Part shown: piece after piece, positions 2,503 to 10,677 of the stretch
Position numbering within the stretch: the first letter of the stretch is position 1
Layout: each line of letters opens with the position of its first letter
From: a virus
Length of the DNA stretch: 45,822 nucleotides
Reading direction: 5' to 3' (one strand)
Virus record (IMG/VR): IMGVR_UViG_3300031857_009447
Location: 1-45,822 of that record
Made by a program: the position numbers and the translations under genes
Notes under the pieces: model-generated
What the model was told of the DNA's origin: nothing
What the model saw: the letters and a program-made list of their open reading frames with translations, nothing else
Databases searched by the model: none

Positions 2503-5500
2503 ATGGCTGACGAAAGAATTGTAACTAGTATAGTTGCAAACTCGGATTTTTCAAATCTTATTGCCGATGTGCAACGAGTTTCAAGCAGCCTATTCAAACT
2601 TCAACAAGAGTTTGCTGGTGCGAATAGAGCATTAGCTGGACAGATAGGTGCCGCTAATGCAATGTTCAATCAGAACATGCTCAAGACTGGCCAGTTCTCC
2701 TCACACTTCGTAAGCCTAACATCAGATGTAGAAAAATTTGGCAAGAATCTTGATGGCGGAAGGCTAAAGCTAAAAGATTATTTTAGAGTATATCAAGAGA
2801 ATGTAAGAACAAGTGGCGGGTTAATTAGAGATCTCGCTAAGCAACAAGTTCAATTACAAAATGCTGTATTGCAACCCCTAGGTAAAAATGCCCAGGGGTT
2901 AATGCAATATAACGTACATATTCCAAGAGGATTAGATGTAACAAAGAATAAGACGGCATTGCTAAAGCAAGAGCTTCAGATAATGAATAAGGTAATTCAA
3001 GATGGCGGAGTTCAGCTTATTAACTGGGGTAAAAATACTCAGTGGGCAGGACGTCAGCTAACAGTAGGATTAACGCTTCCACTTGTTGCATTTGGCAAGG
3101 CGGCAGCAGATGCATTCAAAGTTGCAGATCAAGAATTAACTCGTTTAACTAAGGTTTATGGAGATGTGGCAGGAACATCCGCACAAGAATTAGCAAAAGT
3201 TAGAAAAGAAGTATCTGCCACAGCAAAAGAATTATCTGCTGCAATGGGCGTTAACTTCTCAGAAACAATCGGATTAGCCGCTGATATTGCCGCAACTGGT
3301 AAAACTGGAAATGAATTATTGTCATCTGTTTCTGAAACTACACGTCTTGCAGTACTCGGTGAGGTAGATCGTCAAGAGGCAATGAAGGCAACTCTTGCAA
3401 TTCAATCAGCATTTAAATCAAATACTCAAGAGCTTGCAGAAACTATTAACTTTTTAAACGCAGTTGAAAACCAAACATCAACAACTCTAAATGATCTAGT
3501 AGAAGCTATTCCAAAAGCTGGTCCAGTCATTAAAGGACTTGGCGGAGATGTTCAAGACCTAGCTCTTTATATGACTGCAATGCGTGAAGGCGGAATCAAC
3601 GCATCAGAGGGAGCAAATGCTTTAAAGTCTGCATTGGCATCTTTAATCAATCCAACAGATGTAGCCGTAAAGAAATTCCAAGGATTTGGAATTGATTTAT
3701 TAGGAATTGTAAGTAAAAATGCAGGAGACACAACGGCTACACTTTTTGCATTACAAGCAGCTCTTGATAGATTAGATCCTTTACAAAAACAGCAAGCTAT
3801 CGAACAGTTATTTGGTAAATTCCAATTCTCAAGATTAAATGCTTTATTTGAAAACCTAGGTCGTCAAGGAAGCCAGACACTTCAAGTCTTAGATTTAATG
3901 AAAGCAAGCGCTGGAGAATTAGAAGCGGTGGCTGGCCGAGAGTTGGCGGCAGTAACAGAATCAGCGGCGGGAAGATATAAGAGAGCGGTAGAAACTCTTA
4001 AAGCAGAATTAGCAAGTACAGGAGATTCATTCCTAAATATTGCAACTAAATTAGTAAATGTATTAAATAAGGTTTTAGAATTTGGCTCCAAGCTCCCTGA
4101 TCCAATTAAGAAATTAATGACATTTGCTGGAGCATTTACAGCAATCATTGGTCCAGTAATTATGCTTACTGGTGTTCTTGCAAACTTCTTTGGATATATT
4201 ATTAAAGGGCTTGGACATTTTAAAGCCTTATTTAAAGGCGCAGAAGGATTTCAACTTTTAACCCCAGAAATTATAGCAGCTAAAAACGCCAGCTCAATGC
4301 TGAGTGATGAATTTTATAGCGATGCAAAAGCTGCCGATACTTTAAGCCTTGCAATTAGGAGATTAAGTGAGGACCTAAAGGGACTACAGCTAAATGCTGC
4401 CAATGCTACATCAACAACTAATTCTTTAGGCGCAACAATTGCAACCGCAGCAGGCACTCCAATAATGACAGTTGGAGGAGCATTGGGAGCTCCAAGAATT
4501 TCAGATCCAAATCATCCTTTAATTGGCCCACAATCAAGGGCGGCGGCACATTTAAATCCACGTGATCCTAATAATCCTTCAAGCATATTTGGATTAACCC
4601 TACAGCCAGTTCCAGTAAATAGAAGAATTGGTGCAACTCCTCAAATATTAATGTCCGAAAGACTTCCAGATGTTCCAGGATTAACAACAATGTCTGGAGT
4701 ATCAACAGGTGTTGTTGCAGCAGAGCATGCTAAATTTGCAGCTCTTATGGCAACACTTGGAGTTCAGAGTCAACAAGAAATTGATGCATTAAAGAAAACT
4801 ATTGGTTTAGGCGGACAGGTATCAAGAGAACTTCTAGATACATTTGATGACATATTGCCAATTACACAAAGATTAACTGCAAATGCTGCAGCGCAATCTG
4901 CTAGTATTGTTGCAGAATTAAGAGCGGGAACAATAAATGTACAACAAGCACGTGCTCAAATCATCGCTGTAAATGCTCAACTTGAAGCATTGATGGGTGC
5001 AGAAATTTCTGCATATGCTGCAGGACGTGGCAGAACAATTGATTTAACAAAGGCACCTTTAATAAATCAGCCTGTAGTTGATGTTGCTGGAAAGCCAAAT
5101 ATTCGTGGAGCATATCGTGGTGGCATATTCCTAGATGTCATGGAAAGCCTAGGAAGAGCCACAGGAACTAAAACTTTTGGCGGACCGTATAGTATTGAAA
5201 CTACAAGGCCTATCGGAAGAAACAGAGGGGGCTCAGTACCAGGATATATAAACGGTGAATATGTATACATGACAAATGGAGAAACCGTTCCTGGTCCGAA
5301 TGTAAATGCAGATATTGTTCCAGCAATGCTTACCCCTGGAGAGTTTGTATTAACAAGAGATGTAGTTCAACAGCAAGGTTCAGATGCCGTAGAGGCTCTA
5401 CATAGAGGCCAAGCAGCTATTGTTCCATTTGGAGCAAATATGGGCGGACAAGTACCAGGGTATAGATTTGGAAGATTTGTAAGGCCAGCATCTTCTAGAT

Positions 5501-8500
5501 CTGCTACATCAAGTAGAACAAGAGATATTGCGGTATCTGGTGGATATGGAAATTATTCTTGGCAAACAAGAAATTCTAGAGTGGGATCGGAAATTGATGA
5601 ATATATTAATTCACTTTCAAGTCCACAAGATAAAGCAAAAGCTGCTTTAATAATTCAAGATTTTGCAGGAAGAGTAACAACTTCTTCAAGCAATCCTTTA
5701 GGTAGATCCAGATATCCAGGAGTGATACAGCCGTCACATATTGCTAGAGAAGGAATTGGGCTATCGGCAATTCTTCAAGCAAACGGACTTCCAGCCCTTA
5801 TTCAAAAAGCAAGAACTCATCAAACTCATTTAACAAGAGCATCAGTAAGTGGAGGACGAAGATACGTTAGCAGATATGTTGTTGATTTTGATGCAATGTC
5901 AAATCTTCAAGCTAATGCTGGAACTTTAAAAGTTGCAGATTTTATTGCAAGAAATATGGGAAGAAAAAATAAGTATAATACTTTATTTAAACAATCAGGT
6001 CTTCCTAAAGAAAAATGGCAATTTACAGAAAACCAAATAGATGAATCTATTTCTGCAATGCTTTCTGGAAAAGGTGACAAATTAATTGGAGACAATATCG
6101 GAGACATAATTTTTGAAAGAGACTTTGTTCCAATTATAGATCAAATAATGATAAATAATGGTGCATCTCCTTCACAAATTACAGCAATAAAGAGAAACAC
6201 AATTTTAAGAAGAAATCGTGGCGGGAGAGTTCCAGGATATAATCGTGGCGGAAGAGTAGCTAGGAATCAAAATAGAGCAGGTGGAACAGTAAGAAGTGGA
6301 AGAAGATTCTATGGGGATTTCCACCCAACGCTAGCAAGTCAAATGGGCTTAACTCCAACACCTGGATTTACACCAATGCCTGTAGGCGGACAACAGATTT
6401 CACAGGCATCCCCAAGCAGAGGAATGCTTGGAATGATGGGATTCCAGGCAGCATCATTTGGCGGAATGTATGCTGGACAATCTCTTGGATCAAGATTTGG
6501 CAGCGGCGGCGCAATGGCTGGATCAATAATTGGCTCTATGCTTCCTATGATGATGATGGGCGGAATGGGAGGAAGAGGTCTAGGAAAAGGCACAGAAGAA
6601 GCTTATAATTTTTATGGAAATAAGTTAGATAAATCTTTAGCTGGAAATACTAAGTTTGCAACATCTTTAGCAAATAATGCTGCCCAAGGATCAAAGTTTT
6701 CAAAAGTTTTAATGACAATGGTCGGTGGACTTACTAAACTTAATTTAGTCTTAGCAGGAGTAACATTAGCAGTCGGCGCAGGAATAAAAATTTTTGAAAA
6801 CTATAAAAAAACACAAGAGTTAAGCGCTGCCGAATTTGGAATGACATCCGAAGCAGCAGAAAAAGCTGGGCTTAAATTTACAGATTACAGTAAAAAAATT
6901 AAAGATGCAGTAGAAGCTCAAAAACTTTTAATAGCTCAAAATAAAATAAATTATCAAAACATGGCTTCTGCAGGGACTCCATTCAAGATGACAATTACTG
7001 AATATAACAAGCTGAGAAAAGAAATAAAAGAAACAATGTCTGCTCAGATTGAAATGATAAATGCAATTCAAAGTAAAGATGTTACAAGAGTTGCTACACA
7101 ATTAAAAACTCAGTTTATATCTATGGGTCTTTCTGCAGAAGAAGCAGCAAAGCGAGTATACACATTGTTACAAATGTCTGATAAAGCATATTTAACAGTG
7201 TCTGTAATGTCTTCAAAAACATTTGGAGAAGTTGTAAATGCACAAACCGCAGCTATCAGTGCATTAAAAGCATTTGATTTTGCAAAACAATTTGAGAATA
7301 CAAAAGATCAAGCAGCCGCATTAAATACCGCTCTTATGGCAATAGATGGCGGAATTAAAGAAATTTATGATAAAGCAGAAAAAGCTGCAGCTAAAAAGAA
7401 GCAAGATTTTGACTCTACAAAAGCTCAATACAATGCAGAAAAAACACAGTTAGATGCAATCAATTCTAAAGTTCAAAATCAAAAGGCAATAGGAGATTTG
7501 GTATTAAACAATTTAGCAAAACAAAATCCTTTAATTAGACAGTTTGCAACTGCACAAGATACTGTTGTTAGCCTATGGCAAAAAATGAGAATTGCAGCAA
7601 GAGGATATACTGGAGATTTAAACGAATTAAATGTACAGCAAACTCAAAGACTTTATGATGCTCAAATTGCTATATCACAAGCAGTTGAAAAATCAACTAA
7701 AACTGGAATACTTAAAAAACAATATGATGAATATAAGAGACTATATGGCATACAAAAAGATTTAGAAAAAGCAGCTAAAGGTCAAAGTGTTAAAGAACAA
7801 ATTAATGCTAGAGATGCAATTCGTGCTATTGATAAAAAGATCAAAAAGATTAATGAAGAAGCAGATGCACGAAAGAAAGCTTTACAAGAAGAAGCACAGG
7901 CCGAAGACATAGCCTTAAGAATTAAACAGAAGAGACTAGAATATGAAAAAATGGTTTCTGCTGGAGACTTTGGAGGTGCTGCAGAAGCTCAAATTGAATT
8001 AAGAAGATTGCAAAATGAGCAACAACTTACATTAACAGAGCAACAAATTGAAGAGCGCAGATTAAAGGATGTCGGCCCACTTGAGCGTCAGAAGGAAAGA
8101 CTTGAGAAAAATCAAGAAAAATTAGCAGACAAAGCAGCAATGGCTGCAGAAAGTCTTGAATCTGTTACTAAAAAAGCTGATGCACAAAAGAAAAAAATTG
8201 ACGAAGTTAATATTGCTCTTACAAGTCTTTTAATTGCAAAAGCCACTGGAGAAGGAATTAAAGGTGCAGCTGCAACATTTATTAAAGCACTAGAAGATTC
8301 TGGTGCTGTTTTGGATAAAACCAAGTATGTTGAGGGTGGCAAGCCAACAAATCTGAGCCCAGTTGAAATTGCAAATCAATTTTTAAAAGATGCTAAATTT
8401 GATGTTGGCGAAATATTAGCTGAAAAAGATATTGTTATAACTGCTAACGGAGACATTATAATTGATGGTGTAAATCTAAAAGATAATACATCTGGTCCAA

Positions 8501-10677
8501 GATACACCAGAGACAACCCAGATATTGTTGCTCCTGGAAAATACGAAACTCATACTGAAGGAGACAAAAAAGGAAGATTAACAACATCTGGATCTACACA
8601 ATTAGTTAAAGATAAAGGATATGTAGAAAAAGAATTCTTTATGTATAATGGAGTTTTGTATAAAGTACAAAATGTAAAAAGTAGGACTGGTTTTGATTTA
8701 GGTCTTGGAGCTGTTGCACAAAAAGCAGACGGCGGAGAAATATCTGGTCCAGGAACTGGAACCTCTGATTCAATTCCAATCATGGCTTCAGATGGAGAAT
8801 ATGTAGTTCGTGCTGCCGCAGTTGAACATTACGGCGTAGACACAATGGAAGCAATAAATGCAAAGAGATTCAAAGATGGCGGACTTGTTAGCAAATCAAA
8901 ATATGGAGATACAGCTAACTTAGATGGAGAAGTCTTTAGAATCAATAACGGAACTCCAGAACAAATATTAGCAGATATAAAAGCTGCATATGCCGCAGAG
9001 CCAAAGAAAAAACAATTTAAAAATACAATTGATTATAACCAAGCAATGGAAGAATGGAATAAAATATATTCATTTGTAACTCCTCCTATAAAATCATATC
9101 CTGCTGAAGGAAAAGAATATCCAATGGGCAGCCTACAAAGATTTTTAGCGGTAGCTAATAGTCAAGCTAAGGGTGGAGACTATAACAAGTGGCTTAAGGC
9201 AGATTTAACATCTCACGCTTTTAAAGCATTTTCTCCAATGGACAGAAGTTATTCGTTAGAAGATTTTCTAGATCTCGAAAGCCCAAAGGAAGTTTTTGAT
9301 TATCTGTCCACAGTTCACAACCTTAATAAATATAGTCTAGATACTAACAAGCAATATCAATTAGGCAGCGATTTAATTCGATGGTGCGGAGCGTTTGTAG
9401 CTTGGGTTGCAAAAAATTCTGGGGTAAATATTTCTAAAAATATGTTTAGTGGTTATAAAGCAGTTGAAGAATATAAAAAACTTGGACAATTTAATGAAAC
9501 AGGTGGGCTAAAGCCTGGAGACATAGTATGGTGGGATTATGCAAAAAGATTTGCAGAGGGAAGCGAAGGAGCAAAAGAATATACTCCAGGTATAGCCGAC
9601 CATGTTGATATTGTAAATAGAATTAATAAATCGGGCATTGAAACAATTGGTGGAGGTTTTGATGCTGGCGTTGGAAGAAGGTCTTTAAATTTCAAACAAA
9701 TACAAAGAGACCTGTATGGATCTGTAACTCCAGAATTTCAATCATTCAAAGATGGCGGATTGGTAAGGCCAACATTAGGTACACCAGATCCGAATCAATC
9801 ATTTATAAATAAATTACTATTTGGAACAAAGTATGTTGGCGGAAATATGAAAATGCTTAAAGGAGAATTGCCATTTGGTCCTGGATCCGTAGGGAAAGCC
9901 GCTGCAAGTTTTGCCACTAAATTTAAAGATTTTGATATAAAGTTTACTCCTGGAACGGTTCCATCAGCAGACTCTGTAGTTGGGTATTTTAATAATGCTC
10001 CCGTATTATTAAAAAATTATTTTGATACTATTAAATCTGGTGCAAAATGGCCAAATCTCACCGAGCATCCAGCGTATGAAGCAGGAGGATCTCTTAATGC
10101 CCTTAGAGCATACGTTACTGGATCAAATAAACCAGTTGGAGAATTATCATGGGATCCTTTTAGTGGAACAGTATTAAGCCTCAATGTTGACAGTGCATTT
10201 AGAAGAAAAGGTCTTGCTAGTAAATTTTGGGAAATTGCCTCAGGTCTAGGACCAATATCTCACTCAGCAGTAAGATCTCTTGAGGGTGATGATTGGGCAA
10301 GAGCTGTAGGAGGCAACCTGCCAGACCTGCAACACTTAGTTCCTAAAATGGCAGGTGGCGGATATATAAATCCTACATACTCTGCTAATATGTCAATGCC
10401 ATCATATTATACTGGCGCAAAGTATATATATGATGATACAATAGCAAAATTACATAAAGGCGAAATGGTTGTTCCATCTGGAATGAATCCAAATAATCCA
10501 TTTGCAACTAATGCTGGTGGTGGCATTAGCATTAATATGCCTCTTACTGTAAATGCCGCACCAGGAATGGATGAAGATTATTTAATAAATAAAGCGGCAA
10601 TAAAAGTTCAAAAAGCAATGGAAACAGCTTTAACAAAGGTCGGCACAGAGAGAAATATAACAAGGAGATATCAGTAA
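2503..10677 (+). CDS. Tail tape measure protein with CHAP-like peptidase and GNAT-like domains
   Basis: 2724 residues, the largest gene here. Residues about 180-500 match the TP901-type tape measure core (motifs such as VYGDVAGTSAQELAKVRKE and a GLGGDVQDLALYMTAM-like segment). Hydrophobic, probably membrane-inserting stretches lie near 538-570, 1308-1358 and 1404-1433. A long charged coiled-coil spans about 1435-1950. GGxVPGY repeats and P/DGE(F/Y)V modules recur near 905-1000, 1240-1260, 2076-2125 and 2638-2660. A CHAP/NlpC-like peptidase domain has RWCGAF with Cys2295 and DHVDIV with His2367, presumably cutting peptidoglycan during DNA entry. Residues about 2530-2610 resemble a GNAT fold, with strands followed by FRRKGLASKFWEIA. 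It starts at an ATG after AGGTAA-type ribosome binding sequence and ends overlapping the next ATG. By the usual 0.15 nm per residue rule the tail could approach 400 nm, less if the extra domains do not span the tube. Confidence 0.95.
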   Translation: MADERIVTSIVANSDFSNLIADVQRVSSSLFKLQQEFAGANRALAGQIGAANAMFNQNMLKTGQFSSHFVSLTSDVEKFGKNLDGGRLKLKDYFRVYQENVRTSGGLIRDLAKQQVQLQNAVLQPLGKNAQGLMQYNVHIPRGLDVTKNKTALLKQELQIMNKVIQDGGVQLINWGKNTQWAGRQLTVGLTLPLVAFGKAAADAFKVADQELTRLTKVYGDVAGTSAQELAKVRKEVSATAKELSAAMGVNFSETIGLAADIAATGKTGNELLSSVSETTRLAVLGEVDRQEAMKATLAIQSAFKSNTQELAETINFLNAVENQTSTTLNDLVEAIPKAGPVIKGLGGDVQDLALYMTAMREGGINASEGANALKSALASLINPTDVAVKKFQGFGIDLLGIVSKNAGDTTATLFALQAALDRLDPLQKQQAIEQLFGKFQFSRLNALFENLGRQGSQTLQVLDLMKASAGELEAVAGRELAAVTESAAGRYKRAVETLKAELASTGDSFLNIATKLVNVLNKVLEFGSKLPDPIKKLMTFAGAFTAIIGPVIMLTGVLANFFGYIIKGLGHFKALFKGAEGFQLLTPEIIAAKNASSMLSDEFYSDAKAADTLSLAIRRLSEDLKGLQLNAANATSTTNSLGATIATAAGTPIMTVGGALGAPRISDPNHPLIGPQSRAAAHLNPRDPNNPSSIFGLTLQPVPVNRRIGATPQILMSERLPDVPGLTTMSGVSTGVVAAEHAKFAALMATLGVQSQQEIDALKKTIGLGGQVSRELLDTFDDILPITQRLTANAAAQSASIVAELRAGTINVQQARAQIIAVNAQLEALMGAEISAYAAGRGRTIDLTKAPLINQPVVDVAGKPNIRGAYRGGIFLDVMESLGRATGTKTFGGPYSIETTRPIGRNRGGSVPGYINGEYVYMTNGETVPGPNVNADIVPAMLTPGEFVLTRDVVQQQGSDAVEALHRGQAAIVPFGANMGGQVPGYRFGRFVRPASSRSATSSRTRDIAVSGGYGNYSWQTRNSRVGSEIDEYINSLSSPQDKAKAALIIQDFAGRVTTSSSNPLGRSRYPGVIQPSHIAREGIGLSAILQANGLPALIQKARTHQTHLTRASVSGGRRYVSRYVVDFDAMSNLQANAGTLKVADFIARNMGRKNKYNTLFKQSGLPKEKWQFTENQIDESISAMLSGKGDKLIGDNIGDIIFERDFVPIIDQIMINNGASPSQITAIKRNTILRRNRGGRVPGYNRGGRVARNQNRAGGTVRSGRRFYGDFHPTLASQMGLTPTPGFTPMPVGGQQISQASPSRGMLGMMGFQAASFGGMYAGQSLGSRFGSGGAMAGSIIGSMLPMMMMGGMGGRGLGKGTEEAYNFYGNKLDKSLAGNTKFATSLANNAAQGSKFSKVLMTMVGGLTKLNLVLAGVTLAVGAGIKIFENYKKTQELSAAEFGMTSEAAEKAGLKFTDYSKKIKDAVEAQKLLIAQNKINYQNMASAGTPFKMTITEYNKLRKEIKETMSAQIEMINAIQSKDVTRVATQLKTQFISMGLSAEEAAKRVYTLLQMSDKAYLTVSVMSSKTFGEVVNAQTAAISALKAFDFAKQFENTKDQAAALNTALMAIDGGIKEIYDKAEKAAAKKKQDFDSTKAQYNAEKTQLDAINSKVQNQKAIGDLVLNNLAKQNPLIRQFATAQDTVVSLWQKMRIAARGYTGDLNELNVQQTQRLYDAQIAISQAVEKSTKTGILKKQYDEYKRLYGIQKDLEKAAKGQSVKEQINARDAIRAIDKKIKKINEEADARKKALQEEAQAEDIALRIKQKRLEYEKMVSAGDFGGAAEAQIELRRLQNEQQLTLTEQQIEERRLKDVGPLERQKERLEKNQEKLADKAAMAAESLESVTKKADAQKKKIDEVNIALTSLLIAKATGEGIKGAAATFIKALEDSGAVLDKTKYVEGGKPTNLSPVEIANQFLKDAKFDVGEILAEKDIVITANGDIIIDGVNLKDNTSGPRYTRDNPDIVAPGKYETHTEGDKKGRLTTSGSTQLVKDKGYVEKEFFMYNGVLYKVQNVKSRTGFDLGLGAVAQKADGGEISGPGTGTSDSIPIMASDGEYVVRAAAVEHYGVDTMEAINAKRFKDGGLVSKSKYGDTANLDGEVFRINNGTPEQILADIKAAYAAEPKKKQFKNTIDYNQAMEEWNKIYSFVTPPIKSYPAEGKEYPMGSLQRFLAVANSQAKGGDYNKWLKADLTSHAFKAFSPMDRSYSLEDFLDLESPKEVFDYLSTVHNLNKYSLDTNKQYQLGSDLIRWCGAFVAWVAKNSGVNISKNMFSGYKAVEEYKKLGQFNETGGLKPGDIVWWDYAKRFAEGSEGAKEYTPGIADHVDIVNRINKSGIETIGGGFDAGVGRRSLNFKQIQRDLYGSVTPEFQSFKDGGLVRPTLGTPDPNQSFINKLLFGTKYVGGNMKMLKGELPFGPGSVGKAAASFATKFKDFDIKFTPGTVPSADSVVGYFNNAPVLLKNYFDTIKSGAKWPNLTEHPAYEAGGSLNALRAYVTGSNKPVGELSWDPFSGTVLSLNVDSAFRRKGLASKFWEIASGLGPISHSAVRSLEGDDWARAVGGNLPDLQHLVPKMAGGGYINPTYSANMSMPSYYTGAKYIYDDTIAKLHKGEMVVPSGMNPNNPFATNAGGGISINMPLTVNAAPGMDEDYLINKAAIKVQKAMETALTKVGTERNITRRYQ

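What the first reader, a model, noticed from the sequence alone, without database searches (positions are those of the whole stretch)
10080..10350. GNAT-like acetyltransferase module inside the tape measure
Residues about 2530-2610 read VGELSWDPFSG, LSLNVDSAFRRKGLASKFWE, which has the order of GNAT motif A (strand, then R/K-x-x-G-x-A/G helix that binds the acetyl-CoA pyrophosphate). I know of no established acetyltransferase role in tail tapes. If active, it could be ejected into the host with the tape to modify a target early.
Basis: partly seen in the sequence, partly recalled or inferred. Interest (0 to 1): 0.6.

Follow-up and report, generated by a model that had tools for sequence, protein, structure and literature searches.

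The report
Mini acetyltransferase inside phage tape measure
The tail ruler protein of this uncultured phage carries, next to a cell-wall-cutting domain, a small domain from a phage family of acetyltransferase-like proteins; it has been swapped as a unit between related phages and is under selection, so it is real and probably useful, but its activity and target are untested.

Summary
The 2724-aa tape measure protein (TMP, 2503-10677 +) contains a GNAT domain at aa ~2530-2614 (nt 10096-10344).

A profile built only from 52 other phage proteins finds it at E=1.4e-18 and, apart from L002, no other TMP in the set. Of 56 family members, 39 match Pfam Acetyltransf_1 (best 1.4e-11). The AlphaFold core (pLDDT 89.6) matches GNATs in every listed PDB hit.

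The domain belongs to an apparently undescribed, mostly stand-alone phage "mini-GNAT" family with motif A plus a P-HSxxRTxxGDAWAxxVGG signature. A second TMP (L002) carries the same cassette at 95% identity beside different cargo. The cassette's dS is 0.26 against 1.0-1.25 in other TMP parts, with dN/dS 0.08: recently exchanged as a unit, under purifying selection. It sits in a variable C-terminal slot next to a CHAP-like peptidoglycan hydrolase.

Catalysis is unproven: the core is minimal and the usual alpha-4 tyrosine is alanine. An injected effector is plausible; assembly-time action or a non-catalytic role fit almost as well. GNATs in injected phage proteins are already described (PMC5512222); in a tape measure I found none. 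Verdict: new variant of a known kind.

The parts
2503..10677 (+). Tape measure protein ORF, 2724 aa
   Evidence: the ORF listing; TIGR01760 E=1.3e-29, PF10145 E=4e-28, PHROG TMP families to 4e-118
3073..4146 (+). Conserved TP901/PhageMin_Tail core, aa 191-548
9379..9648 (+). CHAP-like peptidoglycan hydrolase cargo, aa 2293-2382, with Cys of WCGAFV (aa 2295) and His of ADHVDIV (aa 2367)
   Evidence: PF05257 E=1.9e-4, below the gathering cut-off; PHROG endolysin matches 5e-5 and 2e-4 at aa 2287-2388; positions
9910..10392 (+). Cassette shared with the L002 TMP, aa 2470-2630 (upstream 60-aa segment plus GNAT core)
   Evidence: pairwise codon alignment: 93% aa identity in aa 2501-2600 against 19-50% in the 300 aa before it and 64% after
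10096..10344 (+). Mini-GNAT core, aa 2532-2614: strands b2-b3-b4, helix a3, short b5, helix a4
   Evidence: profiles; AlphaFold; Foldseek
10201..10218 (+). GNAT motif A, RRKGLA (R-x-x-G-x-A), expected acetyl-CoA pyrophosphate loop, aa 2567-2572
   Evidence: sequence; the G is invariant in 56 aligned members; strict motif in 54 of 60 distinct members against 3% of control windows
10255..10314 (+). Family signature ISHSAVRSLEGDDWARAVGG (b5-a4), aa 2585-2604
   Evidence: invariance is partly by construction because members were collected with this pattern
10453..10473 (+). HKGEMVV element closing the cargo slot, aa 2651-2657; also found at the end of other TMPs

Best explanation
The TMP carries a genuine GNAT-superfamily domain as exchangeable cargo in its C-terminal slot, beside a peptidoglycan hydrolase. 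It belongs to a compact phage family of mostly stand-alone proteins. Most likely mechanism: the domain is an active acyltransferase, held with the TMP C-terminus at the tail tip, extruded with the CHAP domain at infection, reaching the host cytoplasm and acetylating a host protein early. Shown here: GNAT membership, location, cassette exchange, purifying selection. Inferred: catalysis, entry into the cytoplasm, protein target.
For: GNAT identity: non-circular profile E=1.4e-18; 39 of 56 members match Acetyltransf_1, best 1.4e-11; the PDB chains listed for the family profile are predominantly acetyltransferases, best E 6e-4; AlphaFold core pLDDT 89.6 with all 50 listed PDB structure matches GNATs, TMq mostly 0.4-0.65. 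Not an assembly artefact: the same fusion is in an independent contig, L002. Function: dN/dS 0.08 in the module with dS 0.26 against 1.25 (TMP core) and 1.0 (post-GNAT flank). Delivery context: CHAP-like domain next to it, CHAP plus LysM in the C-terminal part of the L007 TMP. The TMP C-terminus lies in the baseplate core and is released first in siphophage JBD30 (PMC11445458). Precedents: GNATs in injected polyvalent proteins (PMC5512222); phage GNAT Rac acts on host RNA polymerase (PMC7552054). A family-like GNAT also lies in Rhodococcus phage E3 gp70, annotated as structural protein.
Against: The alpha-4 position that often holds the catalytic Tyr in GNATs is Ala throughout the collected family (position from general GNAT knowledge, and the A is part of the collecting pattern). 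The core lacks recognisable b1-a1-a2 and b6-b7. Acetyl-CoA is cytoplasmic, while in JBD30 the extruded TMP C-terminus is proposed to be cut off rather than to form the channel. None of the other TMPs recovered by the conserved TMP core carries the module, so it is dispensable for a TMP.
Confidence: 0.4

Rival explanations
1. The GNAT works in the producer cell. While the TMP is made and assembled in acetyl-CoA-rich cytoplasm it acetylates phage tail proteins, chaperones or a host factor; in the virion it is only a passenger.
For: Acetyl-CoA is present there; neighbours of stand-alone members include terminase, endolysin and tail genes, i.e. late-region genes.
Against: The stand-alone form would suffice for this, and most members are stand-alone. 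Position beside an entry hydrolase gives no reason for a producer-cell role.
Confidence: 0.25
2. The domain is a non-catalytic GNAT fold used for binding or as a structural or cell-wall-contact module in the tail tip.
For: Ala in place of the usual alpha-4 Tyr, minimal core, short b5; the neighbouring cargo acts on the cell wall.
Against: Motif A, the acetyl-CoA loop, is kept across the family, although it was not part of the pattern used to collect members.
Confidence: 0.25
3. The resemblance is chance or the fusion is a metagenome assembly chimera.
For: Single-sequence Pfam scores are below threshold.
Against: Independent profile E=1.4e-18; same in-frame fusion in a second contig with dN/dS 0.08; structure model.
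Confidence: 0.02

Closest known systems
GNAT (GCN5-related N-acetyltransferase) superfamily, e.g. AAC(6')-Iy, RimI-type enzymes
   Same: Motif A loop R-x-x-G-x-A, b2-b3-b4-a3-b5-a4 order, modelled fold
   Different: Minimal core, no usual alpha-4 Tyr, own HSxxRTxxGDAWAxxVGG signature, inside a 2724-aa tail protein
GNAT domains of phage polyvalent proteins (Iyer et al. 2017, PMC5512222), and the solo GNAT Mycobacterium phage Alice gp113
   Same: GNAT in a large multidomain phage protein thought to be injected with DNA; solo versions among late structural genes
   Different: That paper has no mention of a tape measure; Alice gp113 scores only 13.5 bits with this family's profile and lacks the full signature
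Mycobacterium phage Tonenili gp97, Phabba gp84, Blubba gp73 and Rhodococcus phage E3 gp70
   Same: Same mini-GNAT family by profile; E3 gp70 is annotated as structural protein
   Different: Not tape measures; the Tonenili and E3 genes lie close upstream of the portal gene
Tape measure proteins carrying peptidoglycan hydrolase domains
   Same: Enzyme cargo in the C-terminal part of a TMP (CHAP here and in L007)
   Different: The added enzyme is a GNAT, which needs cytoplasmic acetyl-CoA
Rac of phiKMV-like phages (PMC7552054)
   Same: Phage-encoded predicted GNAT acting on a host protein (RNA polymerase alpha)
   Different: Stand-alone gene expressed in the cell, not a virion tail domain; no sequence test of kinship was made

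Membership tests
GNAT superfamily | Motif A, [RQ]-x-x-G-x-[GA], after strand b4 | tested here: met
   RRKGLA at aa 2567-2572; G invariant in 56 members, strict motif in 54 of 60 distinct members against 3% of control windows
GNAT superfamily | Significant profile similarity to GNAT families | tested here: met
   Through the family: 39 of 56 members match Acetyltransf_1, and the window module matches the family profile at 1.4e-18. The window sequence alone stays below threshold
GNAT superfamily | GNAT fold around the acetyl-CoA cleft | tested here: met
   AlphaFold core pLDDT 89.6; all 50 listed Foldseek PDB matches are GNATs, best E 4e-3, TMq up to 0.65; longer model E 2.8e-4. The cleft itself was not inspected
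GNAT superfamily | Complete fold with b1-a1-a2 and b6-b7 | tested here: inconclusive
   Core model shows b2-b3-b4-a3-b5-a4; the 60 residues upstream are modelled as strands plus a helix, and b6-b7 is not seen
GNAT superfamily | Alpha-4 Tyr often used as general acid (not universal) | tested here: not met
   Position is Ala in the collected members (WA of GDAWA). Not a strict defining feature of the superfamily
GNAT superfamily | Acyl-CoA binding and transfer | not testable with these tools
   Needs biochemistry
Phage polyvalent proteins (Iyer et al. 2017) | Several effector or enzyme domains in one virion-delivered polypeptide | tested here: inconclusive
   CHAP plus GNAT in one TMP; delivery not shown
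Tape measure protein (TP901 type) | TP901 / PhageMin_Tail core and place before the distal tail genes | tested here: met
   next large genes match phrog_10359 minor tail protein

The most novel reading that the evidence does not exclude
A siphophage tape measure protein doubles as a delivery vehicle for a protein-acetylating effector: a swappable mini-GNAT cassette at the tail tip enters the host ahead of the DNA and modifies a host protein before any phage gene is expressed.
Probability: 0.3. Interest if true: 0.75.

Novelty: new variant of a known kind. Interest (0 to 1): 0.5.

Why it matters
It would extend tape measure cargo from cell-wall hydrolases to a cytosol-dependent protein-modifying enzyme, and so make the open question of whether the TMP C-terminus reaches the cytoplasm directly testable, with acetylation as the read-out. 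It also uncovers an apparently undescribed family of compact phage GNATs, common in metagenomic phage contigs and found in few cultured phages.

Tried and rejected
Single-sequence Pfam, PHROG and NCBIfam scans of the region: nothing above threshold. Weak hits to the NAD-dependent DNA ligase of phage Eos and phrog_3359: judged chance, no motif A. A TMP-core search in bacterial genomes gave no relative, so the host stays unassigned. Six bacterial genome hits of that pattern share only the C-terminal signature and lack motif A, so they were left out; the genome pattern was slightly stricter than the viral one, so 93 against 6 is not an exact comparison. Plasmid search: only two weak matches, E 0.5 or worse. 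Searching with the upstream 60-aa segment found only the L002 contig again. L001 is the window itself, L106 and L194 are the L002 contig, L162 is Tonenili: not counted as extra examples. An early impression that L002 carries an M23 peptidase and L019 an ADP-ribosyltransferase was not confirmed by Pfam and is not claimed.

Full report
Observation. The ORF 2503-10677 encodes a 2724-aa tape measure protein with a TP901/PhageMin_Tail core at aa 191-548. The window is an IMG/VR virus record of 45,822 bases; its other genes include minor tail proteins, DnaB-type helicase, DNA polymerase and terminase.

Is it a GNAT? By itself the segment is below Pfam thresholds (E 0.17-0.24). Three lines of evidence raise it above doubt. 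First, tblastn finds Mycobacterium phage Tonenili gp97 at E=1e-5, a protein with two matching stretches that passes Pfam GNAT cut-offs. Second, the shared C-terminal signature HSxxx[ST]xxGxxWAxxVGG, turned into a DNA pattern, occurs in 93 stretches of viral contigs, and an AGY-serine variant in 21. The ORFs there are mostly 110-220 aa and carry motif A upstream of the signature, which was not part of the search: strict motif in 54 of 60 distinct members against 3% of control windows. Of 56 aligned members, 39 match Pfam Acetyltransf_1, best 1.4e-11. A profile from 52 of them, without the window, L002 or Tonenili, hits the window TMP at E=1.4e-18 (Z=100,000), and no other TMP apart from the L002 contig, nor any reversed TMP. 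Third, AlphaFold gives a confident core (pLDDT 89.6; longer construct 81.6), and the listed Foldseek PDB matches of both models are GNAT-fold proteins. E-values there are modest (best 2.8e-4 and 4e-3), as expected for so small a core.

Anatomy. The core runs b2-b3-b4-a3-short b5-a4. The 60 residues upstream are shared with L002 and modelled as strands and a helix; whether they replace the N-terminal part of a normal GNAT is open. The alpha-4 position that is Tyr in many GNATs is Ala, and the family instead keeps His-Ser in b5 and Trp in a4. The invariance of that signature is partly by construction, because members were collected with it.

A moving cassette. L002, a TMP of 2524 aa in another contig, carries the module at 95% identity. 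Along the pair, aa 2501-2600 is 93% identical while the preceding 300 aa are 19-50% and the following block 64%. Synonymous divergence of the module is 0.26 against 1.25 in the TMP core and 1.0 after the module, with dN/dS 0.08. The simplest reading is recent exchange of this segment between TMPs, with purifying selection since. This rests on one pair and on 14 synonymous and 4 non-synonymous changes. Among the TMPs collected by the conserved TMP core, 46 of them with their stop codon in the held sequence, none carries the module; most are about 2100 aa, and the longer ones have extra material. In the window the extra part is CHAP-like plus GNAT; in L007, which ends in the same way, it is CHAP plus LysM. 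So the module is an occasional guest in a variable C-terminal cargo slot.

How it may work. In siphophage JBD30 the TMP C-termini lie in the baseplate core and are released first at infection, and the authors propose that this part is cleaved off (PMC11445458). Cell-wall cutting by CHAP fits that place. An acetyltransferase needs acetyl-CoA, so to work it must either reach the host cytoplasm or act in the producer cell. Precedents favour a host target: GNATs are described in injected polyvalent proteins (PMC5512222) and the phage GNAT Rac acts on host RNA polymerase (PMC7552054). Rhodococcus phage E3 gp70, which contains a family-like GNAT, is annotated as a structural protein. None of this shows activity or delivery here. 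I put the injected enzyme at about 0.4, assembly-time action at 0.25 and a non-catalytic fold at 0.25.

Novelty. GNATs in virion or injected proteins, and enzymes in tape measures, are each known. The combination was not found in the papers searched (open-access library only). The mini-GNAT family is nearly absent from cultured phages: mainly mycobacteriophages of the Tonenili, Phabba and Blubba type and Rhodococcus phage E3. I rate it a new variant of a known kind.

Noticed in passing
L090-L182, L195-L214 (viral contigs): A large family of mostly stand-alone phage mini-GNATs, sometimes two in one contig, with neighbours that include terminase, endolysin and tail genes. Apparently undescribed and rare in cultured phages.
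   Followed up: partly
L183-L188 (actinobacterial genomes): Bacterial proteins of 171-236 aa that share the HSPDRTxxGDxWAxxVGG C-terminus but have no GNAT motif A; possibly a diverged sister group.
   Followed up: no
window aa ~995-1235 (nt ~5485-6207): A second variable region of the TMP, between PGPNVNADIVPAMLTPGEF and GGRVPGYNRGG elements; about 20% identical to the same place in L002 and without Pfam match. Possibly another cargo slot.
   Followed up: partly
L003:7431-9686 (Tonenili gp97): 751-aa protein with two mini-GNAT copies, named ParB-like nuclease domain protein in BFVD, close upstream of the portal gene.
   Followed up: partly
L190, L191, L192: Unrelated TMP-like proteins ending in the same HKGEMV.P element, preceded by cargo-like sequence (by eye hydrolase-like in L190 and L191); the element may be a common marker of TMP ends.
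   Followed up: no
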